Assembly (NCBI GenBank): GCA_903844155.1 | Contig: CAIMSU010000156.1 | Coordinates: 59,994-123,993 of the forward strand | Length of the DNA stretch: 64,000 bases | Direction: 5' to 3' | From: an uncultured Pseudomonadota bacterium | Lineage (GTDB): Bacteria; Myxococcota_A; UBA796; SXON01 | In this document: piece after piece, positions 4,106 to 35,857 of the stretch | Layout: each line of letters starts with the position of its first letter | Numbering within the stretch: position 1 is the first letter of the stretch | The notes under the pieces: model-generated | Database searches by the model: none | Told to the model about the DNA's origin: nothing | Seen by the model: only the letters and a program-made list of their open reading frames with translations | Program-made: the position numbers and the translations under genes

Positions 4106-5687
4106 CGCTGTCCATGTAGTCCCACCGGTCGCTCGCCCACTGCTTGAGGTACGCCACCTCGCCATCGTAGTCGTTGAGGTCTCCCCGCCAACCCCAGTAG
4201 CTGTCGTATTGATCGGCCCACTTGTCCCAGTCGCGGCGTGCCGCGGCGTCGATGATCGCGTACTCGTCGTCGTAGTGCTGCAGCACGGCAGCCTTGGCGA
4301 AGGGCCCGTCGAGCGCGGTGCGCATGCGCGACGTCATCTCCGGCGCGAGGTCCGGAAGGGCGAAGGCGCGCTCGAAGAACTTGTTGTTCTCGGTGAAGTC
4401 GTCTGAGTCCGTCGCGTCGACGCGGACGGTCTCCCAGTCCTGGCCCATCGAGTGGTTGAAGTCCCAGGGAGTGTAGTGCCAGATGCCGACGGGATCGAGG
4501 GGGTCGCGGTAGAGATAGCTGTTCTTCCCTGCCGAATCCCCGGCGTCGACGAAGCGGACGAACACCCACCAGTCCATGAAGTCGTCCCGCGACATCGTGG
4601 TGTCGAGGTTCGCCTCAAACGTCGCGTCGTCGGACGTCCCGACGAACTTCTCCAGGTCCTCGAGGTCCGTCCAGTCCGTCGCGCTGCCGGACTTCTTCTC
4701 ATAACCCTCGTCCAACGAAGATTTTCGACTGCCATTCCACTTCACGTCCAGGTTCGCGGAGTGGTCGATGGCTTTGTAGAGCGCCCCCGTGTTCGAGTAG
4801 CCGTTGTCATGCTCCCATTGACCGTCGACGTGGTCGGAGATGAGCATGAGCCCCTCGTACACGTCGTTGAGGTAGAGCACCACCATCTTCGTCTGGAACA
4901 CCGGGTGGGTGGTCGACAGCGAACTCCACAGGTCGTAGCACATCTTCTGCCGGATGTAGGTGTTGTCGTCGAAGGTGCTCGTGATCGAGATGTTGCGCCG
5001 ATGATGCCAACCGGGCGCGTCAAACTCGTCGGTCGCGTCAAAATGGACGGAGTAGCTGTGTTTTGGGTAGTAGGAGGACGACGCGCCGCGGTATTGGACG
5101 CCGACTGCGTACTGGTGGCCCTGCCAGTACAGGTTTCCAGGCGTATCAACGTCGTAGTTCGTCTGGGGAGGCAGGTCCATGTTCAGGACGGGAACGCCGT
5201 CCTCCTCGCTGTACTTGACAGGGTCAACCAGCGAATTTCCGGGGTCGCGCCAGTTGTCGGACACCCAGAGCGTCGCCGTGACGGGAACGCCGCTGCCGTC
5301 GATGTCGGCCACGAGGTCGAGATCGTAGCGACCGGCAGCGTCGAGCGGGGGCGTCCATGCGAGGGTGTTGGCCGACCAGGTCGCGTTGCCGGGGGGCGAG
5401 GCGAGCGAGAGAACGGCATCCGGGTGGTCGGAGCACGCCACTTGCCACGAGACCGCATCGCCTTCGACGGCGTAGAGGTTCAGTGCGTTGAAGCTCGGCG
5501 AACCGGCGAGGGTGACGAGGGTGCAGGTCGGCGACGAGACCGTTGGGACGGAGTCGACCGTGCTGTCCATCGCGGTGTCCGCGGTCACGGTGGAGTCGGC
5601 GGGGGCAGGGGAATCGCCCGCTGCGTCCTTCCCGCCGGGCGTGTGGGTGCAGGCGATGGAGAAGATGAGGATCAAGCTCGTGCGCAT
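4092..5687 (-). CDS. CotH kinase-family lipoprotein
   Basis: Lipobox IFSIAC, Asp/Ser/Thr linker, then CotH-like core (PVLNMDLPPQTNYDVDTPGNLYWQGHQYAVGVQYRGASSSYYPKHSYSVHFD...; WHYTPWDFNHSMGQDW). Confidence 0.82.
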   Translation of the reverse strand: MRTSLILIFSIACTHTPGGKDAAGDSPAPADSTVTADTAMDSTVDSVPTVSSPTCTLVTLAGSPSFNALNLYAVEGDAVSWQVACSDHPDAVLSLASPPGNATWSANTLAWTPPLDAAGRYDLDLVADIDGSGVPVTATLWVSDNWRDPGNSLVDPVKYSEEDGVPVLNMDLPPQTNYDVDTPGNLYWQGHQYAVGVQYRGASSSYYPKHSYSVHFDATDEFDAPGWHHRRNISITSTFDDNTYIRQKMCYDLWSSLSTTHPVFQTKMVVLYLNDVYEGLMLISDHVDGQWEHDNGYSNTGALYKAIDHSANLDVKWNGSRKSSLDEGYEKKSGSATDWTDLEDLEKFVGTSDDATFEANLDTTMSRDDFMDWWVFVRFVDAGDSAGKNSYLYRDPLDPVGIWHYTPWDFNHSMGQDWETVRVDATDSDDFTENNKFFERAFALPDLAPEMTSRMRTALDGPFAKAAVLQHYDDEYAIIDAAARRDWDKWADQYDSYWGWRGDLNDYDGEVAYLKQWASDRWDYMDSVTGR

Positions 5688-6973
5688 GCGGTCTCCACGT
5701 CGGCGATGGTCTTGGGGCAGGCCCGGGAGAGGACGTCGGGGTCGCCCTCGGTGACGAGCACGTCGTCCTCGATACGGACGCCGATGCCGCGCAGGGCCTC
5801 CGGAGCGTCGTGGTCGTCCGGTGCGATGTAAAGCCCGGGTTCTACCGTCACAACCTGACCCGCGGCGAGCGGCCGGGAGCTCAGGCCGATGTGGTAGGCC
5901 CCGACGTCGTGGACGTCCAGACCGAGCCAGTGCCCGGTGCCGTGCATGTAGTATTTGCGGTAGCGCTCTTCGACGATGAGCTCGTCCACGTCGCCGTCGA
6001 GCAGGTTCAGCTCGACCATCCCCGTCGTCAGCACCCGCACAGCGGCGTCGTGCATCTCGCGCCAGGGCCGGCCCGCACGTGCGCAGGCGATCGCGGCGAT
6101 CTGCGCGTCGAGCACGAGCTGGTAGACATCACGCTGGGGCCCCGAGAACCGGCCCGAGACCGGCCAGGTGCGCGTGACGTCCGCCGTGTACCACTCCACC
6201 TCCGCGCCCGCATCGACGAGACAGAGCGTGCCCGGCGCCAGGACGTCCCGGTTGTTCACGTAGTGCAGGACGCACGCGTTCACGCCGCCGCCGACGATGG
6301 TGGTGTAGCCGGCACCAGTCCCCCCGCGTCGCCGAAAGAGCCCCTCGATCGTCGCCTCGACCTCGTACTCGTAGGCACCCGGCTTCCCAGCCTGCATCGC
6401 CGCGATGTGGGCCTCCGCCGTGATCGCCGCCGCCCGACGCAACAACTCCAACTCGTGCTCGTCTTTCTGCAGTCGCAGCTCTCCCAGCAGCACCCGACTG
6501 TGCTCCATCTTCCACGGCAGGCAGAGCCCGTTCCGCAGCGCGGTGCGTGCGTTGGCCGTGGCTTTGAATACGATGCGGTCGTGGTCGGGGTGCTCACCAT
6601 AGGCGTGGTGCAGGCGCTCGTAGCCCTGGAGCAGGACCGGCAGCCTCGACCCCAGCTCGCTGTAGGGGAAGGCGAGGTCTGCCCCGTACCGTCCGCGTGC
6701 GCCCTCCACGCCCTCACGCCGCCCGGTCCACACCTCCTGCTCCTTGTCCTTCGCCTGCACGAAGAGCACGTAGGGATGCTCGCTCCCGGGTCGGAACACC
6801 ACGGCAACCTCGGGATCTTCCCAGCCGGTCAGGTACACCACATCGCTTTGCGGCCGGTACCGGTACTCGCTGTCCGAGTTGCGGGTGGCGTGCGGACCGC
6901 CAAACAGGATGCTCGCCGCGCCGCCCAGGCGTTGGAGGTAGCGGTCTCGTCGAGCGGGGCGGGGATCGGGCAC
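5672..6973 (-). CDS. pepP: Xaa-Pro aminopeptidase (M24B, PepP-like)
   Basis: AMP_N-like FGGPHATRNSDSEYRYRPQSDVVYLTGW; M24 metal-site regions LVDAGAEVEWYTADVTRTWPVSG, HGTGHWLGLDVHDVG and VTVEPGLYI; GTG start at 6973 likely. Confidence 0.88.
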   Translation of the reverse strand: MPDPRPARRDRYLQRLGGAASILFGGPHATRNSDSEYRYRPQSDVVYLTGWEDPEVAVVFRPGSEHPYVLFVQAKDKEQEVWTGRREGVEGARGRYGADLAFPYSELGSRLPVLLQGYERLHHAYGEHPDHDRIVFKATANARTALRNGLCLPWKMEHSRVLLGELRLQKDEHELELLRRAAAITAEAHIAAMQAGKPGAYEYEVEATIEGLFRRRGGTGAGYTTIVGGGVNACVLHYVNNRDVLAPGTLCLVDAGAEVEWYTADVTRTWPVSGRFSGPQRDVYQLVLDAQIAAIACARAGRPWREMHDAAVRVLTTGMVELNLLDGDVDELIVEERYRKYYMHGTGHWLGLDVHDVGAYHIGLSSRPLAAGQVVTVEPGLYIAPDDHDAPEALRGIGVRIEDDVLVTEGDPDVLSRACPKTIADVETACARA

Positions 6974-6990
6974 GCACGATCCTATAGCGA

Positions 6991-7551
6991 TCACGGCTTG
7001 ATCGGCGTGTCCGGGATGGCGGCCGGCGCGGGCTTGCTGCTGCCGGGACCCGGCACGGCGACCTCCGGGACGAAATCCCAGATGTGGAAGGCAGCGGCCC
7101 AGCCGATGAGCGCCACGCAGAAGAGGAGCACGCACACGAGCGAGTAGCCGTTCGCCGCGAGGGATGCCCTGACCTGGCCCTCGCGTGCCTCCTCCAACGC
7201 CCGTTCAAGCGCCGTCCGCTCCTTCTTCTGGCGCTCGGCCCACGCGCGAACGTCGTCGATCCCGAGCTCGCCGAGAACGGCGCCAAGGTCGACCGCCGGG
7301 ATCGCGACGCCGCTCGCCTCGATCCACCGTCGCACCTCGACCGCGAGCGGGTGCCCCGGAAACCGTTGGTAGATCGCCAACACTCGGGCCGGCAGGTCCG
7401 GGCTGTCGCGCTCCGAGAGCACGTCGAACAGCGGGAGGGTGCCCGGGTGGTCGACGAACCGCTCGAGCGCATCGATGATGGCGCTCTTGTCCGGGAGCGG
7501 TGGCGCGCGCTCCGCCTCGCCGCTCACGTCTTCGGGGCGATCAGCAGCCAC
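6991..7551 (-). CDS. Hypothetical single-TM protein
   Basis: ORF of 186 aa with coding-like composition and TM segment SLVCVLLFCVALIGWAAAFHIW. Confidence 0.7.
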   Translation of the reverse strand: MAADRPEDVSGEAERAPPLPDKSAIIDALERFVDHPGTLPLFDVLSERDSPDLPARVLAIYQRFPGHPLAVEVRRWIEASGVAIPAVDLGAVLGELGIDDVRAWAERQKKERTALERALEEAREGQVRASLAANGYSLVCVLLFCVALIGWAAAFHIWDFVPEVAVPGPGSSKPAPAAIPDTPIKP

Positions 7552-8330
7552 GTGAGGTACGGAGGCGTGGCCGTCAGGTTCACCGTCGTGCCGTCTGCCG
7601 TGGCGGAGCCGACAGGAGCGCCGATCTGCCCGATGGCGTCGACGGAGTAGACGTCGTAGTCACCGGCCGCGATGTCGCTGGTGATGGCCATCGTGAACGT
7701 GCCGGTGGCGACCGTGCCGAGCGGGCCAAAGGCGACTGCGAGCGAGGGGGTCACGCCCCAGAACGCGCCGATGCCGCTGGCCGGAACGACCCCGGCCCAG
7801 AGCGTGTTCGCGTCGCCCGCCAGGGGGTCGACCGTGAGGGTCGACGGGTCGACGGTCCAGGCGATGGGGCCAAAGGTGTAGGTCTTGGACGTGGTCATCA
7901 CCACCGGCCCGAAGAGCTGGGGAAGGAACATGGGCGACGGCGCGGTCCAGGCGCTCGCATCGTCGGCCAGGGTCGCGGGCACGCGCTCGTCGCCATGGTC
8001 GGTGGTGCCGAACCCGATCGCGTCAATCTTGTAGTTCCCGGCCCGCATCCCGGTGAAGTGGAACGCGCCGGTGGCGTCCGTGCGCGTCGTGTAGCACTGG
8101 GTGACGCAGGCCTGCACGCTGATGTTGCTCACGGGGCCGTCGTAGGCGACGACGGTGCCATCGACGGTCCCCGTGGGGCCCGCCGAATCACCGCCCATGT
8201 TGCTGTCCACGCTGTTCGTGTCGGTGTCCGCGGTGCTGTCCGACCCAGTGCTCGTGTCCTTGGTGCTCCCGGAGCAGCCGTAGGCGAGCGTGAGTGCCAG
8301 ACAGAGGGAGAGTGAGACGGGAGCGCGCAT
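7524..8330 (-). CDS. Lipoprotein with carboxypeptidase-regulatory-like domain
   Basis: Lipobox LAYGC followed by an Asp/Thr/Ser linker; VDGTVVAYDGPVSNISVQACVTQCYTTRTDATGAFHFTGMRAGNYKIDAIGFG. Confidence 0.75.
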   Translation of the reverse strand: MRAPVSLSLCLALTLAYGCSGSTKDTSTGSDSTADTDTNSVDSNMGGDSAGPTGTVDGTVVAYDGPVSNISVQACVTQCYTTRTDATGAFHFTGMRAGNYKIDAIGFGTTDHGDERVPATLADDASAWTAPSPMFLPQLFGPVVMTTSKTYTFGPIAWTVDPSTLTVDPLAGDANTLWAGVVPASGIGAFWGVTPSLAVAFGPLGTVATGTFTMAITSDIAAGDYDVYSVDAIGQIGAPVGSATADGTTVNLTATPPYLTWLLIAPKT

Positions 8331-8883: not shown

Positions 8884-11006
8884 GACGCCTCCCCAGCTTG
8901 ACGGGGCTCGGCGCTCTCGTTTGTCGCCTGTTTTGTGTAATGCTGGGCGTACTTCTTGTAATAGCCGTAGGTGCCGGAGCGCGGGTCGACCTTGTTCAGC
9001 ACGAAGCCGATCGGCTCGACACCGGCGCCGTCCATCCTCAGCTTCACGTCGGAGAGCATCCGCCGCGTCGTCTTGCCAGCCTCGACGACCATGACCACGC
9101 CCTTGCTCGCGCGGGAGAGCGCGACCGCGTCCGAGACGGCGAGCATCGGCGGCGCATCGACGATCACCATGTCGAACGTGCGTCCAAGCTCGGCGAACAT
9201 CGTGCGGAGCTTGAGGCTCTCGACGAGCCGGCCGGGGTTCGAGGGGAGCGCGCCGCTGGTGAGCACGCTGAAGTTCGGAACCGACGTGCCCTGAATGGAG
9301 TCCGCGAGCGTTGACGTACCCGCGAGGACTGTGGACACGCCGAACTGGTTGGTGAGGCTCGGGAAGTTCTTGTGCTGCGTCGGGCGCCGCAGGTCGCAGT
9401 CGACGACGATGACGCGCTTGCCGTCGGCGGCGAGGCAGATGGCGAGGTTGGTGCAGAACGTGCTCTTGCCCTCCCCCGGGATGCTGGAGGTGACGGTCAG
9501 CACGTTGATCTGCTGGTCAACCCCGGCGAACGCGATGCCCGAACGCACGGCCCGGTAGGCCTCCGCGAGGGGGTCGGTCGGCGGCACGCTGTCGATGAAC
9601 CGGCCGGTCTTCAGCTTGTACTTGGGAATGAAGCCGAGGACGGGGAGGGACCACGCGATCTTGATGTCCTCCTGGCTGCGGATCGAGTCGTCCACGTACT
9701 CAAGGAGGAACACCAGCGCGGCCCCGGCGCACACGCCCACGAACGCGCCCAGGATCGTGTACACCAGCACCTTCGGCGAGTCCGGCTTGTCCGGCTGCTT
9801 GGCGAGCTCGACCGACTTCATGTCGGAGACCGTGAGCGCCTCGGCGACCGCGATCTGGTACTGCTCTTCCATGAGCGACTCGTACACCGACTGGGTGGCC
9901 GAGACGCGGAGTTGCAGCTTGGCCAGTTGCTGGGCTTTCTTGGGGAGCGCGGCGCCGTTTTCGATGGTCTCGTTCAGGCGGGCTGCGATCTCGTCACGAC
10001 GCTGGCGCTCGCCGGAGAGCTGGACTTGCAGGGTCTCCATCTGCGGGTCGAGGTCGTGGGACTCCTTCTGCGAGACTTCGATCTCGTGCTGGACGGCGGC
10101 GATCTGCTTGTTGTCGGCGATGATGTCCGGGTGGTCTTCGGTCTTGTCGAGCATCGCGGCGTTCTTCGAGAGGCGCAGCTCGGTGAGCTTGTCACGCAGG
10201 GACCTCAGCGTGCTGTTGGAGGCCTCCGACGAGGGGGCGACGAGGTCCGGCGACTCCAGGAGGTTCTGCTGGCCGCGTTCGTGCAACTGCGCGGTGTTGT
10301 CTCGGATCTGCGCGTCGACCGTGTTCAATTCGTTGATGAGCTCGTTGACGCGGCCAACGGCGCCCTTGGTCTCCGAGTCCAGCTCGATGACGTGCTCCTT
10401 GGCCTGGCCCTCCGCGAGGTCCTGCAGCGAGGATGTGTACTGCTCGTCGAGCTGGCCGAGCTGGGCCTTGACGAAGGTGAGCGCCTGCTCCGTGTCGCCC
10501 TTCGCATAGTCGACGGAGAGCTTGAGGAAGACCTCTACGCCCGTGTCCGCGAGCAACGCCGAGAGCTCGGGGGTGTTCGCATCGGCGCTGATGATCAGGA
10601 TGTCGGTCCCCTGCGCCTGGGTGATCGAGAGCATCGGCATGGCCTCGATTGTCCCATCGATGCCGGGTGCGAGGAGCTTCTCGGGCTGCAGCAGCTTCCC
10701 ATAGATGTCTCGGAGCTGCAGGCGCCACACGATCTCGGACAGCACAGGCCGCATCTGGGAGAGCGACATCTTCGTCTCGATGTCGTTGGACGAGCTGTTC
10801 AGCGCCGACGCCATCTCGCCGAGGCCCATGTCGCCAAGGATCGAGAGCGCCGTAGACGAGGACGAGACGCTGATCTTGCTCGCCGAGACGTAGTGCCTGG
10901 GCATCACCATCGCGAGCGTGATCGCGCCTGCCGTGAAGAACACGACCGCCTGGATGAAGATCCATTTCCGGCGGAGGAGCGCGTTCCAGATCTTGAGAAG
11001 TTCCAT
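8880..11006 (-). CDS. wzc: Polysaccharide biosynthesis tyrosine autokinase (Wzc/BY-kinase)
   Basis: Wzz-type N-terminus MELLKIWNALLRRKWIFIQ; Walker A SSIPGEGKSTFCTNLA; C-terminal Tyr cluster YGYYKKYAQHY; ATG at 11006 preferred. Confidence 0.92.
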   Translation of the reverse strand: MELLKIWNALLRRKWIFIQAVVFFTAGAITLAMVMPRHYVSASKISVSSSSTALSILGDMGLGEMASALNSSSNDIETKMSLSQMRPVLSEIVWRLQLRDIYGKLLQPEKLLAPGIDGTIEAMPMLSITQAQGTDILIISADANTPELSALLADTGVEVFLKLSVDYAKGDTEQALTFVKAQLGQLDEQYTSSLQDLAEGQAKEHVIELDSETKGAVGRVNELINELNTVDAQIRDNTAQLHERGQQNLLESPDLVAPSSEASNSTLRSLRDKLTELRLSKNAAMLDKTEDHPDIIADNKQIAAVQHEIEVSQKESHDLDPQMETLQVQLSGERQRRDEIAARLNETIENGAALPKKAQQLAKLQLRVSATQSVYESLMEEQYQIAVAEALTVSDMKSVELAKQPDKPDSPKVLVYTILGAFVGVCAGAALVFLLEYVDDSIRSQEDIKIAWSLPVLGFIPKYKLKTGRFIDSVPPTDPLAEAYRAVRSGIAFAGVDQQINVLTVTSSIPGEGKSTFCTNLAICLAADGKRVIVVDCDLRRPTQHKNFPSLTNQFGVSTVLAGTSTLADSIQGTSVPNFSVLTSGALPSNPGRLVESLKLRTMFAELGRTFDMVIVDAPPMLAVSDAVALSRASKGVVMVVEAGKTTRRMLSDVKLRMDGAGVEPIGFVLNKVDPRSGTYGYYKKYAQHYTKQATNESAEPRQAGEAS

Positions 11007-27468: not shown

Positions 27469-27517
27469 AGCCTCCAGCCCGAAGCCTCCAGCCTGACGCC
27501 TCCAGCCTCCAGCCTCA
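27469..27517. repeat. CCTCCAGCCY-type tandem repeat copy 2
   Basis: agcctccagcccgaagcctccagcctgacgcctccagcctccagcctcag; about 14-bp units. Confidence 0.8.
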
Positions 27518-28159
27518 GTAGAACACCGCCCCCGCACCCGGGTTTGCCCGGCCGTCCAGCCCCTCCAACGCCGCGATCGCCGCCTTCGCCGCCTGCGCAA
27601 CCTCCTCCTCCGAGCCGCCGAGGTACAACCGCCCGAACGCGCCGAAGCTCACGATCTCCAGCACCTCGATGTCCGCTGCCTTTTCGGCCTCGTTCGCCGC
27701 GATGAGCGCGTAGCCGGCGGGGTGGCACTCCAGGATGTAGAGCGTCTGCCCGTCTTCGATGACGTTGCCGTGGCGCATGCGGTTGGTGATCTGCGCATGG
27801 TAGCCGTGGATCCCGGTGATCGTCTGCGAGCTGACGATGCGCGGCTTGAGCCGCTCCTGCGCGGTGATCGCGAGCGCGCCGAGGATCGCGTCACCCGCGG
27901 CGCGGATCTGGCCTTGATCGGTGTGTTGGAGCTGCAAGCAGCCGAACTGGCGTTCGACGATCTGCATCCCAGGGGTGCACGACGTCTGCTTCAGCGCGAT
28001 GTCCGTGACGACGTTCACGTCCATCCCCGGCGCCACCTCGACGAGCAAGCCCGCCTGTCCGGTCAGCGGCATGTACCCGCGCGAAACCGTGGCGAGGAAC
28101 GCCGCGGTCTGCGGCTGGAGGATGTCGAGGTAGGTGAAGCAGCGGAGCTCGATGGCCAT
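27515..28159 (-). CDS. Tandem bacterial-microcompartment (BMC)-domain shell-like protein
   Basis: C-terminal half LYILECHPAGYALIAANEAEKAADIEVLEIVSFGAFGRLYLGGSEEEVAQAAKAAIAALEG matches the BMC-domain pattern; N-terminal half (TDIALKQT...GMQIVERQFGCLQL...VRAAGDAIL-like) resembles a second copy. Confidence 0.78.
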   Translation of the reverse strand: MAIELRCFTYLDILQPQTAAFLATVSRGYMPLTGQAGLLVEVAPGMDVNVVTDIALKQTSCTPGMQIVERQFGCLQLQHTDQGQIRAAGDAILGALAITAQERLKPRIVSSQTITGIHGYHAQITNRMRHGNVIEDGQTLYILECHPAGYALIAANEAEKAADIEVLEIVSFGAFGRLYLGGSEEEVAQAAKAAIAALEGLDGRANPGAGAVFY

Positions 28160-28231
28160 CGGGGTCAGATAACCCGGCCTCGGGCCCTCCCCAACTTGCG
28201 CGCCCGCTCGCGCTCACCCGCTCCGGGGTTT

Positions 28232-28762
28232 CTACGCCTCGCCCCAGGTCTTCGGCATTCTGGCGGGCCCCTCTGGGACCAGCTCGACCCGGGACCGCGG
28301 CGCCACGCCAAACCACGTGATGTCGGCGCCGGAACGCCTACGCCCGCGCGTCTGGAACCCTGGACGCCCGTCCTGCCCAGCCGGTTCGATGCCGATCACC
28401 ACTTCGAACCGCTCGCCGAGGCACTCTCCGGCCACGAGCCACGCGCCCAGCGACCCCATCTCTGCCGGGACGATCGCCCGGAGTATGCCGGCCACGGCCA
28501 CCGCCTCATCGCGCCGGGCCAGCGCCCGGAACACGTCGTCGGTGTGTGCGGGGTCCTGTTCGCGCAGGATCCACTCGGTCGCTCTGCGCCCCCGCATCGT
28601 CACGAGGACGGGAGAGTCGAACTTCCCGGCTACGATATCCCGGAACAGCAGCCCCATCGCCGCGCGCACCACCGCCTCCGCCCCTTGCGGCGCCTGGCCG
28701 AGGACGTGCTCGCGCTTCAGCAGTTGGGTCTTTGTCAAGCCGTACCATCGTAACAAGACCAC
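28232..28762 (-). CDS. Hypothetical protein
   Basis: 176 aa coding-like ORF, GTG start. Confidence 0.6.
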   Translation of the reverse strand: MVLLRWYGLTKTQLLKREHVLGQAPQGAEAVVRAAMGLLFRDIVAGKFDSPVLVTMRGRRATEWILREQDPAHTDDVFRALARRDEAVAVAGILRAIVPAEMGSLGAWLVAGECLGERFEVVIGIEPAGQDGRPGFQTRGRRRSGADITWFGVAPRSRVELVPEGPARMPKTWGEA

Positions 28763-28774
28763 CCGGCGGGTGGT
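28758..28774. repeat. Perfect inverted repeat ACCACCC-GGC-GGGTGGT
   Basis: 7-bp arms, 3-nt loop, overlapping the GTG start of 28232..28762. Confidence 0.7.
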
Positions 28775-28802
28775 CGGTGGCCTGAGGGTCGGAGCACCCC
28801 GA

Positions 28803-29084
28803 TCAGGAGCGCGGGGCTCGTCGGTTCCCGGCGATCAGCATGGCAATTCCAGCGAGCACCCCTGCGCTCGCCCCACCGTCGCCCCCGCCCGCCGAACACC
28901 CGGGCGTCGCGCTTCGCACGTCCCCGACCGAAGCAGCCACCGCGTAGAGCGCGACGCCGTCGGCCACCCCGCGGGCCGCGATGTCGTGCCAGTCGTCGGT
29001 CAGGCCGGCGACGCTGGTGAGCGAGCGGGGGCGCGCCTGACGTGCGGGACGCGCGCTCGATCCGGGTGTCGGGCCCAACGGCAA
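28803..29084 (-). CDS. Short ORF with MYXO-CTERM-like tail; possible gene remnant
   Basis: Ends in PGCSAGGGDGGASAGVLAGIAMLIAGNRRAPRS (Cys-Gly-rich, hydrophobic segment, Arg-rich end). Confidence 0.45.
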   Translation of the reverse strand: MPLGPTPGSSARPARQARPRSLTSVAGLTDDWHDIAARGVADGVALYAVAASVGDVRSATPGCSAGGGDGGASAGVLAGIAMLIAGNRRAPRS

Positions 29085-29126
29085 CGCCGAGATCTGCTAC
29101 CCTCTCGGCGCCACCCCGGAGCGTTC

Positions 29127-29510
29127 ATGGTATGCCAGACCCACCCATCGGTCACCGCGGCGGCAAGCTGCGACGGTTGCGCAGAGCCATTCTGCAAGAA
29201 CTGCCTTGTGAGCGTGGGGGACCGGCGCTACTGCTCCGGCTGCAAGACGATGGCGGTGGCGCCAGACGTCACTCAGCGTGTGACGTGCCAGGAGGCGAAT
29301 GAGGCGCTGAAGATGGCGGTGCTCAGCATCTTTTGCTTCGGGATCTTCGTGGCTCCGCTCGCGATTCAAAAAGCGCTCAAGGCGAGGGCGCAGATCGCGG
29401 CGGACCCGTCGCTCCGGGGGGAGGGCGAGGCTACGTTCGCGCTTGTCCTCGCGACCTGCGTCCTGCTCCTCAACGTCCTCGGATTTCTCTCCAAGATCAC
29501 GAAGCTCTGA
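29127..29510 (+). CDS. B-box-like zinc-finger membrane protein (operon gene 1)
   Basis: MVCQTHPSVTAAASCDGCAEPFCKNCLVSVGDRRYCSGCK plus two hydrophobic segments; ATG at 29127. Confidence 0.8.
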   Translation: MVCQTHPSVTAAASCDGCAEPFCKNCLVSVGDRRYCSGCKTMAVAPDVTQRVTCQEANEALKMAVLSIFCFGIFVAPLAIQKALKARAQIAADPSLRGEGEATFALVLATCVLLLNVLGFLSKITKL

Positions 29511-29527
29511 CTCGACCCGGGACCACC

Positions 29528-29956
29528 ATGCCTGCTTGCTACGCGCACCCCGAACAGACCGCGCTCCACACGTGTACGTCCTGCGGTCGTGGCCTATGTG
29601 AGCTGTGCAGGTTCGTGGTCGGCGCCGAGCCCCGATGCCCCGACTGCATGCTCGCGGGCAGGCAACGCCCGCCCGAGTCCAAAAACCCCCAGTACTCCCT
29701 TGCACTGGGCGCTGTCGCTGTTGTCTTCCTGATGGCGTTCTTCGTGGTGGCGGCCCTGGGCGACAGTGCTGGATACGGAGTCCTGTTTCTGGGCGCACTC
29801 ATCTGCATGGTCGCCGGACTCACGCTCGGGCTCACCGCGCGACGCGATGCCAACAACAAGATGCCGGTGCTTGCGATCGTCGGAGCTTCACTCAATGGAT
29901 TGCTGCTGTTGCTGTTCGCTGTGCTCATCTGTGTGGGCATGAGCAAAGGAGGTTAG
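29528..29956 (+). CDS. B-box-like zinc-finger membrane protein (operon gene 2)
   Basis: MPACYAHPEQTALHTCTSCGRGLCELCRFVVGAEPRCPDC plus DUF4190-like TM region. Confidence 0.8.
   Translation: MPACYAHPEQTALHTCTSCGRGLCELCRFVVGAEPRCPDCMLAGRQRPPESKNPQYSLALGAVAVVFLMAFFVVAALGDSAGYGVLFLGALICMVAGLTLGLTARRDANNKMPVLAIVGASLNGLLLLLFAVLICVGMSKGG
29946..29952 (+). promoter_or_regulatory. Shine-Dalgarno for the ubiquitin-like gene
   Basis: AAGGAGG inside the 3' end of the preceding ORF, 5 nt before ATG 29958. Confidence 0.75.
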
Positions 29957-29957
29957 G

Positions 29958-30239
29958 ATGGGAATGATCACCGTAGAGGTCTGGGACGCTACCGGCAGCC
30001 GGAAGACTCCGGTTGAGCTGCCGGACGACGCACCGGTGAACCGCCTGCTGGTGGTGCTCGTCGAGCGCATGAAGCTGCCTCAGAACAGCCCGGACGGCCA
30101 AATCATGAGCTACAAGTTCCATCACAAGGCCAGCGGCCGACAGTTGTTGGACAGTCAGACCCTCGGTGAGGCCGGCGTGAAGGAGGGCGACGTCCTTCGC
30201 CTCCAACCCGAGATCACCGCGGGATCGGGCCCGAAATGA
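29958..30239 (+). CDS. Ubiquitin-like beta-grasp protein (YukD/EsaB-like)
   Basis: MITVEVWDATGSRKTPVELPDDAPVNRLLVVLVERMKLPQ...YKFHHKASGRQLLDSQTLGEAGVKEGDVLRLQPEITAGSGPK; adjacent to E1/E2/JAMM genes. Confidence 0.85.
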   Translation: MGMITVEVWDATGSRKTPVELPDDAPVNRLLVVLVERMKLPQNSPDGQIMSYKFHHKASGRQLLDSQTLGEAGVKEGDVLRLQPEITAGSGPK

Positions 30240-30964
30240 CCCAGGACGACGACCGCTTCGCGCGCTTCCGGCTGATCGAATGGTGGGACCAGGACATCAT
30301 CGCGGGTGCCAGGGTCCTGGTGGTCGGGGCGGGCGCGCTTGGCAACGAGATCCTGAAGAACCTCGCGCTCCTGGGGTTTCGGCAGCTCGTGGTCGTGGAC
30401 ATGGACCGCGTCGAAGAGTCGAACCTCTCGCGCTCCGTATTGTTCCGAACTGAGAATCAAGGCGAATTCAAGGCCGTCGTCGCGGCGCGCGCCGCGCGCG
30501 AGCTCTACCCGGATGCGGTGATCGAGCCTGTCGTGGCCAACGTCGTCCATGATCTCGGAGCCGGGATATTTCGCTGGGCAGATCTGGTGATCTGCGGGCT
30601 CGACAATCGGGAGGCACGGCTGCATGTGAACCGAATGTGCTACGCGGCCGGCACGCCCTGGATCGACGGCGCCATCGAGGTACTCTCGGGGGTCGCCCGC
30701 CTTTTCCGGCCCGCGGAGGGAGCCTGCTACGAATGCACGATGGGGGAGGCGGACTGGCGCCTGCTCGCACAGCGCCGGTCCTGCAGCCTTTTGGCTCGCC
30801 AGCTCGTCTCCGAGGGGAGGGTACCGACAACCCCGACCACGAGCGCGATCATCGCCGCAGTCCAATGCCAGGAGGCCGTCAAGCTGCTGCATGGCCGGTC
30901 CACGCTGGACGGCGCGGGCTGGGTGTTCGACGGGGTGCAACTGGACTCCTATCGGGTCGAGTAG
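30236..30964 (+). CDS. ThiF-family E1-like adenylyltransferase, N-terminal part up to an in-frame TAG
   Basis: ARVLVVGAGALGNEILKNLALLGFRQLVVVDMDRVEESNLSRSVLF; RRSCSLLARQLVSEGRVPTTPTTSAIIAAVQCQEAVKLLHG; ATGA overlap with the Ubl gene. Confidence 0.9.
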   Translation: MTQDDDRFARFRLIEWWDQDIIAGARVLVVGAGALGNEILKNLALLGFRQLVVVDMDRVEESNLSRSVLFRTENQGEFKAVVAARAARELYPDAVIEPVVANVVHDLGAGIFRWADLVICGLDNREARLHVNRMCYAAGTPWIDGAIEVLSGVARLFRPAEGACYECTMGEADWRLLAQRRSCSLLARQLVSEGRVPTTPTTSAIIAAVQCQEAVKLLHGRSTLDGAGWVFDGVQLDSYRVE

Positions 30965-31426
30965 CAGCGAAAAGCAGACTGCACAAGCCACGATCCCTGG
31001 CCGGACGTCCACATTCTGGCGCGCGGCGCGGCCGAGCTCACCGTTGCCCAGGCCCTCGAAATGGCGCAACTTGAACTCGGGGCCGGCGCCCGCATCGAGC
31101 TGGTCCGCGAGCTGCTCTGGGGGCTCGACTGCCTGGAGTGCGGTACCTTTCGGGTGCTGTTGCGCCCGCTCTCGGCGGTCACCGAGCGGGACGGGGAGTG
31201 TCCGGATTGTGGCGCGCGTCGCGCCCCCCGGCTCTTTCACGCGCTCGGCGAATCCAGTCCGTTCCTGGATCGGACGCTGTCCGAGCTCGGGGTACCCGAG
31301 GGTGATGTCCTCCTCGGGCGGGCCGGCGAGCGACGGGCGGCGTGGCAGCTCGCGGGCGGGCCTGCCGCCATGGGAAGGCCGAAGCCGGCGCCCCGGGACT
31401 CCCAACTGGCGGTGACGAATGGATGA
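30965..31426 (+). CDS. In-frame continuation of the E1-like protein after TAG (QRKADCTSHDPWP... plus zinc ribbon); ATG available at 31061
   Basis: Same frame as 30236 ORF; conserved-looking QRKxDCxSH segment, CLECG...CPDCG zinc ribbon; start codon of any independent gene uncertain. Confidence 0.7.
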   Translation, partial: QRKADCTSHDPWPDVHILARGAAELTVAQALEMAQLELGAGARIELVRELLWGLDCLECGTFRVLLRPLSAVTERDGECPDCGARRAPRLFHALGESSPFLDRTLSELGVPEGDVLLGRAGERRAAWQLAGGPAAMGRPKPAPRDSQLAVTNG

Positions 31427-32537
31427 ATTGGACTCGATGGCGTCGGCCCCCGCCGGAGTCTTTCCCGGGGGTGACGCAGCGCCGGAGCAGGGGGAGCTTC
31501 GGATCGCGTGGGACAAGCGGCCGTATGCCGCGGTGCTCGCGCATGGCGCGCGCGACCCGGAGGTGGAGATCTGCGGCGTCCTGGTCGGGAGGGTGGCGAC
31601 GGACAGGCACGGGTGCTTCGTGCAAGTCACCCACGCCATCGAGGGGGTCGGCGCGGCGGAACAGGGGGCCCACGTGACCTTCACCCACGACACCTGGAAC
31701 CACATCAACGCCGAGATGGACCGCCTGCACTCCGGCCCCGAGGGACGACGGATCGTCGGGTGGTACCATACCCACCCGGACTTCGGCGTGTTCCTCTCGG
31801 ACATGGACCTCTTCATCCACCAGAACTTCTTTGCCCAGTCCTGGCAACTGGCCTATGTCTACGACCCACTATCGGGGAACGAGGGGCTTTTTCGGCTGGT
31901 GGACGGCAAGCTCTGCAGCGCGGACCGGTACTGGCTGGGGGGGCGGCAACGACGGATCGCCGCAGGAAAGGACGCGGCGCCCGCCTCGTCCCCCGCCGAC
32001 ACCAACGTTGCCCTGACCCGCGCGCTGACCGTACTCACCCAGTCGCTCACGGAGTCGCGCGAACGATCCTCGGCGAGCTGGCCGCCGCTGTCCTGGATCA
32101 TCGCCGGTATGGTCGGGCTGTTCGCCGTGCTCCAGCTGAGCGGCGGTCTTGGGCAGCGCGATCACAGCGACCCGGCTGCGATGCTGATCCTCGACAAGGA
32201 CCCCCGAAGCGGGGTGGGCCTCGGGGTTCGCGTCTACCCGGTCGCTGCGAGTGATGGCGAGCTGGTGCCGCTGTACAAGGACGCCAGGTCGGATCAATAC
32301 TATGGTGTGGTCCTTGAGCGCGCCGACAAGGCGGGCCTGCCGGATCTCAAGCAGGTGCTGGCGGCGGCCACACAACCCGACCCCAAGCCTTCCGCGAGCG
32401 ACGGCGCCAGCGGCTCCACCACACTTTCCCGGGCCTGGATCGCCCTCCCCATCATCGCCGCTGTGATCCTGGCGGTGTTTGCGACCGTGGCGGGCCTCGC
32501 CCGCCGCAAACGACGCGAAGGCCGCGGAGCACCATGA
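31419..32537 (+). CDS. Membrane-anchored JAB/MPN (JAMM) metallopeptidase
   Basis: EICGVLVGRV...IVGWYHTHPDFGVFLSDMDLFIHQNFF (HxHx7SxxD); two C-terminal TM segments. Confidence 0.92.
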   Translation: MDELDSMASAPAGVFPGGDAAPEQGELRIAWDKRPYAAVLAHGARDPEVEICGVLVGRVATDRHGCFVQVTHAIEGVGAAEQGAHVTFTHDTWNHINAEMDRLHSGPEGRRIVGWYHTHPDFGVFLSDMDLFIHQNFFAQSWQLAYVYDPLSGNEGLFRLVDGKLCSADRYWLGGRQRRIAAGKDAAPASSPADTNVALTRALTVLTQSLTESRERSSASWPPLSWIIAGMVGLFAVLQLSGGLGQRDHSDPAAMLILDKDPRSGVGLGVRVYPVAASDGELVPLYKDARSDQYYGVVLERADKAGLPDLKQVLAAATQPDPKPSASDGASGSTTLSRAWIALPIIAAVILAVFATVAGLARRKRREGRGAP

Positions 32538-33898
32538 GTCAGCCCCACGACCCCTCCCGGGCGACCATCCGTATCCTCCCTGAGGACCTCGCCGATGCCC
32601 GGGTGGACGCTGCTCTCGCCGCCGCCCAGTCGTTTGGCATGGCAACGGCCCGGCCACCTCCACTGCCAGACGCGAAGACCGGACTCTGGTACCGCCCGTG
32701 GTTCGCGGTCATGCTGGCCGGAGGGCTTGGCGCGTTCGTTGCCTGGCTGGCGTTCGAGCCCTTCTTCGATGACTTCGACACGGTGCGTGGCAACTTGACG
32801 GACGTCCAGAGGATGTCGGCGGACAATGCCGAGTATCTTCGCCTCACCGTCTCCGGGACCCCCGTCTGGGTCAGCCCCGATTCAGTGGCGGTGCACCTGG
32901 ACGGCGTCACCGGCGACAGCGCCGGGCTGACGGTCGGGCAGGTGGTGGAGGTGCGCGGCACAATGTTGCAGGATGAAACGGGTATTCTCGGGCTCGCCGT
33001 GGATGTGGACACGCGGGACGACAAGACATACGCCCCCCTCGATCTGCGCGCGCTCAAAGCCCGTGACGCGGGGGTAAACCTTGCGATTTTCCCCCTCGTC
33101 GCCGCGTTCGTTGGCCTGTTCGTCGGGGCGGCGGACGGGATAGTCTCGCGTGCCGCGCATCGGGCGCTGACGTGCGGGGCGGTCGGACTTGGCTCGGGGC
33201 TCATCGGAGGAGCGCTCATGGGGGTCATCGCGAACCTTTTCTTCGGGTTCGCGTCGGAGCTGATCCCGATGGTCGACAGTGGACCTCGGGACCACCTCTC
33301 CACCGCTGCCTTCCTGCTTCAGGTTCTGATTCGCGGGATTGCCTGGTCCATTGCCGGCGTGGCCATGGGACTCGGGCAGGGCATCGCGCTCCAGTCGAGG
33401 CGATTGCTGCTGAACGGGCTCATCGGTGGCCTGATCGGCGGCCTGGTCGGCGGCCTCCTTTTCGACCCGATTGACCTCGGACTTCGGGGGTCTCTCGCCG
33501 TGGCCTCCGAGGCCTGGCTGAGCCGGGGCGTCGGGTTCACGGTCATCGGACTCTCGGTCGGCTTTACCATCGGGATGGTGGAGATTCTGGCCCGCGAAGC
33601 GTGGGTGAAGCTGCTCACCGGCCCGCTGGCCGGGAAGGAATTCGTCCTCTACCGAAACCCCACCCGGATCGGGAGCTCGCCCAAGTCGGACGTCTACCTG
33701 TTCAAGGACGCCGATGTGGAGCCGGCGCATGCCCTGGTCCACGCCGTCGGCGAGGAGTGGGAGATCGAGGATGAGGGGAGTGCTTCGGGCACCTGGGTGG
33801 ACGGCAGGAGGGTCCGCCGACATCGCCTGCGCCCGGGCGACCAGATCCGGATTGGAAAGACCGTCTTCGCCTACCATACCAAGACCGAGCAGACGTGA
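32534..33898 (+). CDS. Multi-TM protein with C-terminal FHA domain
   Basis: FVLYRNPTRIGSSPKSDVYLFKDADVEPAHALVHAVGEEWEIEDEGSASGTWVDGRRVRRHRLRPGDQIRIGKTVFAYH; ATGA overlap. Confidence 0.9.
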   Translation: MSQPHDPSRATIRILPEDLADARVDAALAAAQSFGMATARPPPLPDAKTGLWYRPWFAVMLAGGLGAFVAWLAFEPFFDDFDTVRGNLTDVQRMSADNAEYLRLTVSGTPVWVSPDSVAVHLDGVTGDSAGLTVGQVVEVRGTMLQDETGILGLAVDVDTRDDKTYAPLDLRALKARDAGVNLAIFPLVAAFVGLFVGAADGIVSRAAHRALTCGAVGLGSGLIGGALMGVIANLFFGFASELIPMVDSGPRDHLSTAAFLLQVLIRGIAWSIAGVAMGLGQGIALQSRRLLLNGLIGGLIGGLVGGLLFDPIDLGLRGSLAVASEAWLSRGVGFTVIGLSVGFTIGMVEILAREAWVKLLTGPLAGKEFVLYRNPTRIGSSPKSDVYLFKDADVEPAHALVHAVGEEWEIEDEGSASGTWVDGRRVRRHRLRPGDQIRIGKTVFAYHTKTEQT

Positions 33899-34524
33899 CG
33901 GTGAAGCTCGAAGAGGAGTCGGCCGGGCCCGGACTCGCGGGCGCCCTCTGCGCGATCTGCCAGACGCCGATTCGGGCGGGGGAGCGCACTGGGCCGTGCC
34001 CCGCATGCACATCGCCGTTCCACGTCGATTGCTGGGTCGAGAACGGCGGATGCGCGACCTACGGCTGCGAGCACATGCCTGAGTTGGTGAAGGAAAGCGC
34101 GCAGCCGACGCCTGTCTTTGCTGAGGCGACTGAGCGGCCCTGCCCAAGTTGCCGCAAGCCGATTCGAACAGCGGCCCGCAGGTGCAAGCATTGCGGCGTC
34201 ATCTTCGAATTGGCCGCCCAGCCAGTGGGGCCGGTCGGGCGATCCCAGACGCTATCGCGGAAACCGGCCCCGTCCCCGATGAGCGCTGACGCATCCGGCG
34301 CATCCGTCGAACGAGGGGGAGAGAAGGCGGCCCGCCTTGTGCTCATCCTCGGCTTCATCCCCTGCACGGCCCCGTTCGCGCTGCTGTTCGGCGGACTCTG
34401 GTATCTCTCGCAGCGCTCGGCGCGCAGCCGCCTCTCTCCCACCGGCGAGGCCGACGTCACGTTGGGCCTCGCGGTGAGCGCGGCCTTCACGGTCGTCGGG
34501 CTCGTCGTTCTGGCGCTGTCCTGA
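33895..34524 (+). CDS. Prokaryotic RING-like zinc-finger membrane protein (candidate E3)
   Basis: LCAICQTPIRAGERTGPCPACTSPFHVDCWVENGGCATYGC treble-clef/RING-type Cys-His pattern; second zinc ribbon CPSCRKPIRTAARRCKHCG; C-terminal TM. Confidence 0.85.
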   Translation: MTVKLEEESAGPGLAGALCAICQTPIRAGERTGPCPACTSPFHVDCWVENGGCATYGCEHMPELVKESAQPTPVFAEATERPCPSCRKPIRTAARRCKHCGVIFELAAQPVGPVGRSQTLSRKPAPSPMSADASGASVERGGEKAARLVLILGFIPCTAPFALLFGGLWYLSQRSARSRLSPTGEADVTLGLAVSAAFTVVGLVVLALS

Positions 34525-34847
34525 TGCCCGTGGAGAGCGCGACGGATCCGATCCGAATCACGGCGGAGGAAGCCTGGCAAGCGGTGCCCGCGAGTCCGCG
34601 GGCGCGGGTGGAGCCAAAGCGCCGTTCGGCCGGCCAATCCACCAGCCACCTGGCGTCGATCTCGGTCGTCGCTGGGGCGTTCGGCGTCCTGCTCCCGGGG
34701 TTGCTCCTTGGCCCCGTCGCGGTGGCGTGTGGGCTGCTGGCGCTTTGCAGCCCGGGGGAGGTCTCGCAGCCCGCGCAGCGAAACCGAGCCATCCTGGGTG
34801 TACTTCTGGGGTTTCTGGACTTCGTGGCCTGGGCACTGCTTGTCTGA
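34524..34847 (+). CDS. Small two-TM protein (DUF4190-like) of the same operon
   Basis: SISVVAGAFGVLLPGLLLGPVAVACGLLAL...RNRAILGVLLGFLDFVAWALLV; start overlaps the preceding stop. Confidence 0.75.
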   Translation: MPVESATDPIRITAEEAWQAVPASPRARVEPKRRSAGQSTSHLASISVVAGAFGVLLPGLLLGPVAVACGLLALCSPGEVSQPAQRNRAILGVLLGFLDFVAWALLV

Positions 34848-34972
34848 GGCCTCCTTGGCCCGGCGCCTCCCACCCGCAGCGCTCCGGTGCGGCCGCCGCC
34901 AGGCAGCCACACCGCGTCGTACCGGGAGCCTGGACCGTGCTCTTTCTCGGCCTTGCACCAGCAGGAACCCAC

Positions 34973-35758
34973 ATGAGCGTACGCCTCCGTCGATTGACTG
35001 CCGACGCCTTGCTTGTGCGGCGATGCTTCGCCGAGCATCCACACATCCGCGTGGTGGAGACGGAGGGCGATCCTCCGGAGCGCTACCGCGTCGAATACCG
35101 GCTCACAAGCTTGGTGATCCAGGCTGGCTCCGTCGTGGAGAAGGACAGGCAGCTCGTCGAGATCTTCCTGACCCTCGGCTACCCGCGTCAGGCACCCCAG
35201 TGTCGCATGCTGACCCCTGTGTTCCACCCCAACATCGCCCCGCACGCGGTGTGCGTCGGCGACCATTGGAGCGCGGGCGAGTCCCTGCCGGCTCTGATCG
35301 CGCGGATCGGCGAGATGATCACCTATCAAAGCTACAACCTGAAGAGTCCGCTCAACGGGCAGGCGGCACGCTGGGCGGCGGAGAACGTTGGGCGTCTCCC
35401 GGTGCAATCCGTGGACCTCTCCGTGGATCTCGCTGCGGCTCGCGCGTGGATCGCCTCCTCTGAGGCTGGCTCCCAGCACGGAGTGACGGCGCCATCGCCG
35501 GGCATCGACGTTGCATCCGAGGCGATGCGCCTGGGAAACGCGAGAGCGGCCATCGAGGTCCTCGACGGCGCGATCGCCGCTTCGCCCGCGGACGCTGAGG
35601 CCTGGAGGCTCCGGGCAGTGGCCCGTTCGATGCGTGGGGACCGCGAGGGCGCCGCCTACGACTTCGAGGCCGTGCTACGGCTGTGTCCCGACCATGAACG
35701 GGCCGAGTGGATGCATCGGTTCGTCCGCGACGTCCTTGGACGGGCGGCGCGCGCTTAG
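34973..35758 (+). CDS. E2-like ubiquitin-conjugating (UBC) domain protein with TPR-like C-terminus
   Basis: LGYPRQAPQCRMLTPVFHPNIAPHAVCVGDHWSAGESLPALIARIGEMITYQSYNLKSPLNGQAARWAAEN (HPN motif, Cys, W); C-terminal AMRLGNARAAIEVLDGAIAASPADAEAWRLRAVARSMRGDREGAAYDFEAVLRLCPDHERA. Confidence 0.9.
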   Translation: MSVRLRRLTADALLVRRCFAEHPHIRVVETEGDPPERYRVEYRLTSLVIQAGSVVEKDRQLVEIFLTLGYPRQAPQCRMLTPVFHPNIAPHAVCVGDHWSAGESLPALIARIGEMITYQSYNLKSPLNGQAARWAAENVGRLPVQSVDLSVDLAAARAWIASSEAGSQHGVTAPSPGIDVASEAMRLGNARAAIEVLDGAIAASPADAEAWRLRAVARSMRGDREGAAYDFEAVLRLCPDHERAEWMHRFVRDVLGRAARA

Positions 35759-35857
35759 CCGGAGGGCCCGAGCGCCAGGGCTTTGCCTTCCGCCGGACGA
35801 CCAACCGTCCGTCCCCGTCCCCGCCTCCCGTCGACCGTCGCGCTCCCCGCCCGTTTC

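What the first reader, a model, noticed from the sequence alone, without database searches (positions are those of the whole stretch)
27515..28159. Orphan tandem-BMC (microcompartment shell-like) protein with no enzymatic BMC locus nearby
The C-terminal half is a strong BMC-domain match by eye (ECHPAGYALIAANEAEKAADIEVLEIVSFGAFGRLYLGGSEEEVAQAAKAAIAALEG), and the N-terminal half looks like a divergent second BMC domain, implying a BMC-T-type pseudohexamer. Neighbours (FG-GAP-like lipoprotein, hydrolase, hypothetical) include no aldehyde dehydrogenase, BMC-P vertex protein or signature enzyme, so it may form a free-standing assembly or serve a non-compartment role.
Basis: partly seen in the sequence, partly recalled or inferred. 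Interest (0 to 1): 0.66.

Follow-up and report, generated by a model that had tools for sequence, protein, structure and literature searches.

The report
Satellite microcompartment shell protein, BMC-T3 type
This gene encodes one gated-pore tile of an ordinary bacterial microcompartment whose other shell and enzyme genes lie elsewhere in the same genome, exactly as in the model myxobacterium Haliangium ochraceum, so the "orphan" is a known kind of satellite gene.

Summary
The gene is real: an intact 214-codon ORF at 27515-28159, minus strand. It encodes a tandem, permuted, double-stacking BMC trimer protein (BMC-T^dp). It aligns end to end with Haliangium ochraceum HO-3341 (BMC-T3, PDB 5V76: 62.6% identity, E 8e-81) and with CcmP. 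The AlphaFold model (pLDDT 92.5) superposes on 5V76 at 1.2 A. All five gating-pathway residues described for CsoS1D/CcmP appear to be present. The same genome carries a complete HO-type metabolosome locus on contig C342 (BMC-T2, BMC-H, BMC-P, acylating aldehyde dehydrogenase, BMC-T1, two more BMC-P, class II aldolase) and an EutB/EutC/EutL satellite on C167. In 58 genomes of the order, the ortholog occurs in 38, and 37 of those also have BMC-P. The tree puts the window protein and HO-3341 in one Myxococcota clade of stand-alone genes (100/99), while relatives in other phyla lead main BMC operons. Sutter et al. 2021 already describe satellite loci for HO BMCs. Verdict: an ordinary satellite shell gene, low interest. 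In passing, a 7.7 kb ubiquitin-like conjugation island sits immediately upstream; it is absent at this site in four sister species and is most likely unrelated.

The parts
27515..28159 (-). Satellite BMC-T^dp shell protein, ortholog of Haliangium ochraceum HO-3341 (BMC-T3); 214 aa
27851..28153 (-). First permuted BMC domain (residues about 3-103)
   Evidence: full-length alignment to 5V76 and AlphaFold secondary structure E3-10...H81-95
27563..27850 (-). Second permuted BMC domain (residues about 104-199)
   Evidence: Pfam BMC 142-198; AlphaFold elements E106-113...H183-198
27950..27955 (-). Codons of the gating pair Glu69-Arg70 (= CcmP Glu69-Arg70)
   Evidence: ungapped alignment with CcmP; invariant in all 44 aligned relatives; role from PMC13316943

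Best explanation
The gene encodes BMC-T3, a low-copy gated tile of an HO-type metabolosome. The protein should form trimers that look like hexagonal tiles, with two trimers stacking face to face around a chamber. It would insert among the BMC-H tiles of the shell encoded on contig C342. Each stacked face has a central pore opened and closed by Glu69/Arg70, lined by Arg6, Arg127 and Arg177. This would act as an air-lock that admits bulky anionic metabolites such as sugar phosphates or cofactors while the shell retains the aldehyde made and consumed inside by the aldolase, the acylating aldehyde dehydrogenase and perhaps the EutBC lyase. The gene lies away from the main operon because the Myxococcota lineage carries T3 as a satellite, with a CsoS1D-like BMC-T2 in the operon. 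Separate expression may tune shell permeability. Shown here: sequence family, predicted fold, gating residues, presence of the main locus, and a single clade of satellite genes. Inferred: assembly into this shell, transported substrate, regulation.
For: The protein matches HO-3341 (5V76) over 206 residues at 62.6% without gaps, CcmP at 47.8% and HO-5816 at 49.5%. AlphaFold gives pLDDT 92.5 and pTM 0.88, and Foldseek's top hit is 5V76, TM 0.93/0.97, rmsd 1.2 A. Glu69, Arg70, Arg6 and Arg177 are invariant and Arg127 at least 90% conserved in 44 relatives; they correspond to the CsoS1D pathway residues of PMC13316943. The C342 locus holds BMC-T2, BMC-H, BMC-P, ALDH, BMC-T1, two further BMC-P and a class II aldolase in one direction. 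C167 holds EutB, EutC and EutL. Of 38 genomes with the ortholog, 37 have BMC-P; of 20 without it, 6 do. In the tree the window protein, HO-3341 and 30 stand-alone, mostly Myxococcota genes form one 100/99 clade, whereas relatives in other phyla head main BMC operons. PMC8217296 describes HO satellites and EUT modules. PMC11924220 uses T3 as a stacked tile of full HO shells.
Against: No expression, interaction or assembly data exist for this organism. One genome (G043, 83% complete, 740 contigs) has the ortholog but no detected BMC-P or BMC-H. An incomplete assembly is the likely reason, but a true orphan there is not excluded. The co-occurrence test does not correct for shared ancestry. The single-domain Pfam score is marginally below its cut-off.
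Confidence: 0.94

Rival explanations
1. A true orphan: the protein forms free-standing sheets, tubes or stacked trimers and has a non-compartment role.
For: No BMC gene lies beside it; one incomplete genome (G043) has it without detected BMC-P or BMC-H.
Against: A complete HO-type BMC locus is in the same genome; 37 of 38 genomes with the ortholog have BMC-P; the gating residues are retained; the H. ochraceum ortholog is used as a shell tile.
Confidence: 0.03
2. The shell protein is a functional partner of the adjacent ubiquitin-like conjugation genes (28.2-35.8 kb), for example as their target or scaffold.
For: The conjugation cluster begins within about 2 kb upstream of the BMC-T gene, with opposite orientation.
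Against: In four sister species the BMC-T gene sits directly beside the gene at 35855 with no conjugation genes between. The E1 is absent from all 62 other genomes of the order searched, most of which have the BMC. In the related class members the E1/Ubl/E2 genes sit by contractile-injection baseplate genes, with no BMC gene noted.
Confidence: 0.02
3. The satellite mainly serves the EutBCL module, letting the HO shell switch to ethanolamine, rather than the main aldolase pathway.
For: EutB/C/L module in the genome and EutB in most genomes of the family; PMC8217296 proposes EUT modules as functional extensions of HO BMCs.
Against: EutB is missing from nearly all genomes of families f4, f5 and f6 that keep the BMC-T3 ortholog, so T3 is not tied to ethanolamine.
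Confidence: 0.05

Closest known systems
Haliangium ochraceum HO-3341, BMC-T3 (PDB 5V76; BMC-T^dp tile of the HO shell)
   Same: Full-length gapless alignment, 62.6% identity, same fold at 1.2 A, same satellite clade, and the same combination with T1, T2, H and three BMC-P genes in the genome
   Different: About 37% residue divergence; gene neighbours of HO-3341 were not compared; assembly not tested
CcmP of beta-carboxysomes (PDB 4HT5, 5LSR)
   Same: Permuted tandem BMC, Glu69-Arg70 gate, 47.8% identity
   Different: Carboxysome component; the window protein scores below the NCBIfam CcmP equivalog cut-off, 260 against 340 bits
CsoS1D and HO-5816 (BMC-T2), the CsoS1D-like BMC-T^dp branch
   Same: Same architecture and gate; a paralog of this kind is in the C342 main locus
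   Different: Separate branch of the tree, 49% identity, located inside the main operon

Membership tests
BMC-T^dp (double-stacked permuted tandem BMC shell protein) | Two consecutive circularly permuted BMC (pfam00936) domains | tested here: met
   Full-length match to nine BMC-T^dp chains; AlphaFold model with two permuted BMC folds; Pfam itself detects only the second domain and slightly below cut-off
BMC-T^dp (double-stacked permuted tandem BMC shell protein) | Conserved pore-gating Glu-Arg pair | tested here: met
   Glu69-Arg70, aligned with CcmP Glu69-Arg70, invariant in 44 relatives
BMC-T^dp (double-stacked permuted tandem BMC shell protein) | Dimerisation of two trimers across their concave faces | not testable with these tools
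   Only a monomer model was made; needs crystallography or cryo-EM
HO-type BMC, satellite BMC-T3 (HO-3341) | Ortholog of HO-3341 rather than of HO-5816 | tested here: met
   Window protein and 5V76 in one clade with support 100/99, HO-5816 outside it
HO-type BMC, satellite BMC-T3 (HO-3341) | Main locus elsewhere in the genome with BMC-H, the BMC-P triplet, ALDH and a BMC-T^dp | tested here: met
   Contig C342: BMC-T2, BMC-H, BMC-P, ALDH, BMC-T1, BMC-P, BMC-P, class II aldolase
HO-type BMC, satellite BMC-T3 (HO-3341) | Gene located away from the main locus | tested here: met
   C156 against C342; 124-kb contig; no BMC gene within the flanks held in the 19 closest homologous loci
beta-carboxysome CcmP | Score over the NCBIfam CcmP equivalog cut-off, and carboxysome context | tested here: not met
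   260.5 bits against 340; context is a metabolosome with ALDH
Free-standing (non-compartment) BMC protein | No BMC-H or BMC-P in the genome | tested here: not met
   One BMC-H, one BMC-T1, one BMC-T2, one EutL and three BMC-P genes found

The most novel reading that the evidence does not exclude
The stand-alone placement is kept across Myxococcota because T3 is expressed under different conditions from the main operon, so the cell swaps the gated tile into a pre-existing HO shell to change its permeability. In this strain the 7.7 kb insertion directly upstream would have replaced that control region. Nothing here tests this.
Probability: 0.12. Interest if true: 0.35.

Novelty: new member of a known kind. 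Interest (0 to 1): 0.12.

Why it matters
It matters little as a discovery: it closes the orphan hypothesis and adds a clean myxobacterial example of a satellite BMC-T3 with its HO main locus and EUT module. The evolutionary contrast may help those who study HO shells: one satellite clade in Myxococcota, while relatives of the same protein head the main operon in many other phyla.

Tried and rejected
Orphan or free-standing assembly: rejected by whole-genome searches for BMC-H/T and BMC-P. Functional link with the adjacent ubiquitin-like genes: rejected by empty-site comparison with four sister species and by genome searches. Conserved satellite synteny pointing to a partner enzyme: none found; in the window's genus the shared neighbours are the FG-GAP lipoprotein and hydrolase on one side and the 35855 and 39313 genes on the other, and in other families a membrane protein and a lipoprotein upstream. 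Terminal repeats around the inserted island: none convincing. A literature search for Hoch_3341 found no paper. The N- and C-terminal halves give no BLASTP match to each other, so the tandem nature rests on the full-length homologs and the predicted fold.

Full report
OBSERVATION. Window 27515-28159, minus strand, is an intact ORF of 214 codons. The plus-strand frame at these coordinates is a shadow frame. The protein matches the NCBIfam CcmP profile over residues 1-207 at E 1.1e-77, below that model's equivalog cut-off. It matches nine solved BMC-T^dp chains over their length, with 5V76 best at E 8.1e-81, then CcmP (5LSR, 4HT5), HO-5816 (5V74), CsoS1D (3F56) and others. Gapless identities are 62.6% to 5V76, 47.8% to CcmP and 49.5% to HO-5816. 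Pfam BMC hits only the second domain, at 24.0 bits against a cut-off of 24.5. The AlphaFold model from 44 window and locus sequences has mean pLDDT 92.5 and shows two consecutive permuted BMC folds.

IS IT AN ORPHAN? No. The window lies on contig C156 of an 8.13-Mb, 375-contig assembly. PF00936 and PF03319 searches of that genome find further BMC genes on C342 and C167. Contig C342 (L010) reads in one direction: BMC-T^dp 4292-4903 (closest to HO-5816/6N07), BMC-H 4947-5237, BMC-P 5284-5610, an acylating-type aldehyde dehydrogenase 5619-7022, BMC-T1 7629-8228, BMC-P 8967-9275, BMC-P 9272-9550 and a class II aldolase 9547-10320. This is the HO-type locus with the BMC-P triplet and aldolase, as in type II HO loci of Sutter et al. 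2021 (PMC8217296). Contig C167 (L011) carries EutB, EutC and a EutL-type shell protein, the "EUT module" satellite that the same paper reports for HO BMCs.

CO-OCCURRENCE. In 58 genomes of the same order, an ortholog at 60% identity or more is present in 38. Of these 37 have BMC-P, against 6 of 20 genomes without it (Fisher p 5e-8, not corrected for shared ancestry). The exception, G043, is 83% complete in 740 contigs and gave no BMC-H hit either.

EVOLUTION. A genome-contig scan gave 80 loci. In Myxococcota the close relatives stand alone. In most of the loci from other phyla the relative sits in the main BMC locus, usually directly ahead of BMC-H, BMC-P, ALDH, T1, P, P. The maximum-likelihood tree places the window protein, HO-3341 and 30 stand-alone genes in one branch with support 100/99. 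HO-5816 and the genome's own T2 lie on another branch. The satellite state is thus old and shared with the model organism; that HO-3341 is itself distant from the main H. ochraceum locus is inferred from its locus number against HO-5816, and its neighbours were not inspected here.

MECHANISM. Shown: fold, gate residues, genomic partners. The pair Glu69-Arg70, aligned without gaps to CcmP Glu69-Arg70, is invariant in 44 relatives. Arg6 and Arg177 are invariant and Arg127 nearly so. They correspond to CsoS1D R57, R229 and R178 in the air-lock pathway of PMC13316943. The R229-Arg177 equivalence rests on a one-residue offset between the alignment ends and was not inspected residue by residue. Inferred: trimer stacking, insertion into the C342 shell, gated passage of bulky anionic metabolites, and separate regulation as a permeability control. 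The last is proposed generally for satellite shell genes in PMC8217296. T3 is an established stacked tile in recombinant full HO shells (PMC11924220).

NEIGHBOURHOOD. Window 28.2-35.8 kb holds a cluster for ubiquitin-like conjugation: a YukD/ubiquitin-like protein, a ThiF/E1, a zinc-ribbon protein, a JAB protease, a membrane FHA protein, a prokaryotic RING protein and a UBC/E2-TPR protein. In four sister species (L043-L046) the BMC-T gene lies 15-134 bp from the homolog of the gene at 35855, and flanking order is conserved on both sides. The cluster is therefore most simply an insertion of about 7.7 kb in this lineage. Conservation upstream of the BMC-T start ends within about 20-25 bp. The E1 is absent from 62 other genomes of the order but has 39-43% relatives in six genomes of the same class, where E1, Ubl and E2 genes lie near baseplate-J and, in one, gp19 tail-tube genes. 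It is not part of the BMC finding.

VERDICT. The sequence observation is right and the orphan interpretation is not. It is a new ortholog of a known satellite shell protein. Interest 0.12.

Noticed in passing
window 28160-35854: A ubiquitin-like conjugation cluster (Ubl 29958-30239+, E1/ThiF 30236-30964+, zinc ribbon 31061-31426+, JAB 31419-32537+, FHA membrane protein 32534-33898+, Prok-RING_1 33895-34524+, DUF4190-like 34524-34847+, UBC/E2 with TPR 34973-35758+) inserted between the BMC-T gene and the gene at 35855; empty site in four sister species, E1 absent in 62 other genomes of the order. Not matched here to a named system.
   Followed up: partly
L132, L133, L135 (same class, other families): Relatives of that E1 (39-43% identity) sit with YukD-like Ubl and/or UBC-like genes; baseplate-J genes of a contractile injection system lie nearby in L132 and L135, and a gp19-type tail-tube gene in L132, suggesting a Ubl-conjugation link to such particles.
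   Followed up: partly
L011:88-3016 (contig C167): EutB, EutC and EutL in a row at a contig end, an EUT module satellite in a genome with an HO-type BMC; EutB is found in most genomes of the family.
   Followed up: partly
L043, L054: Public MAG records titled Bifidobacterium breve and Klebsiella pneumoniae hold orthologs 98% and 79% identical to this myxobacterial protein, and L043 shares the window's gene order; the record names look wrong.
   Followed up: no
window 29127-29510 and 29531-29956: Two small adjacent genes with an N-terminal B-box-like zinc finger followed by a membrane region, within or at the edge of the inserted island.
   Followed up: no
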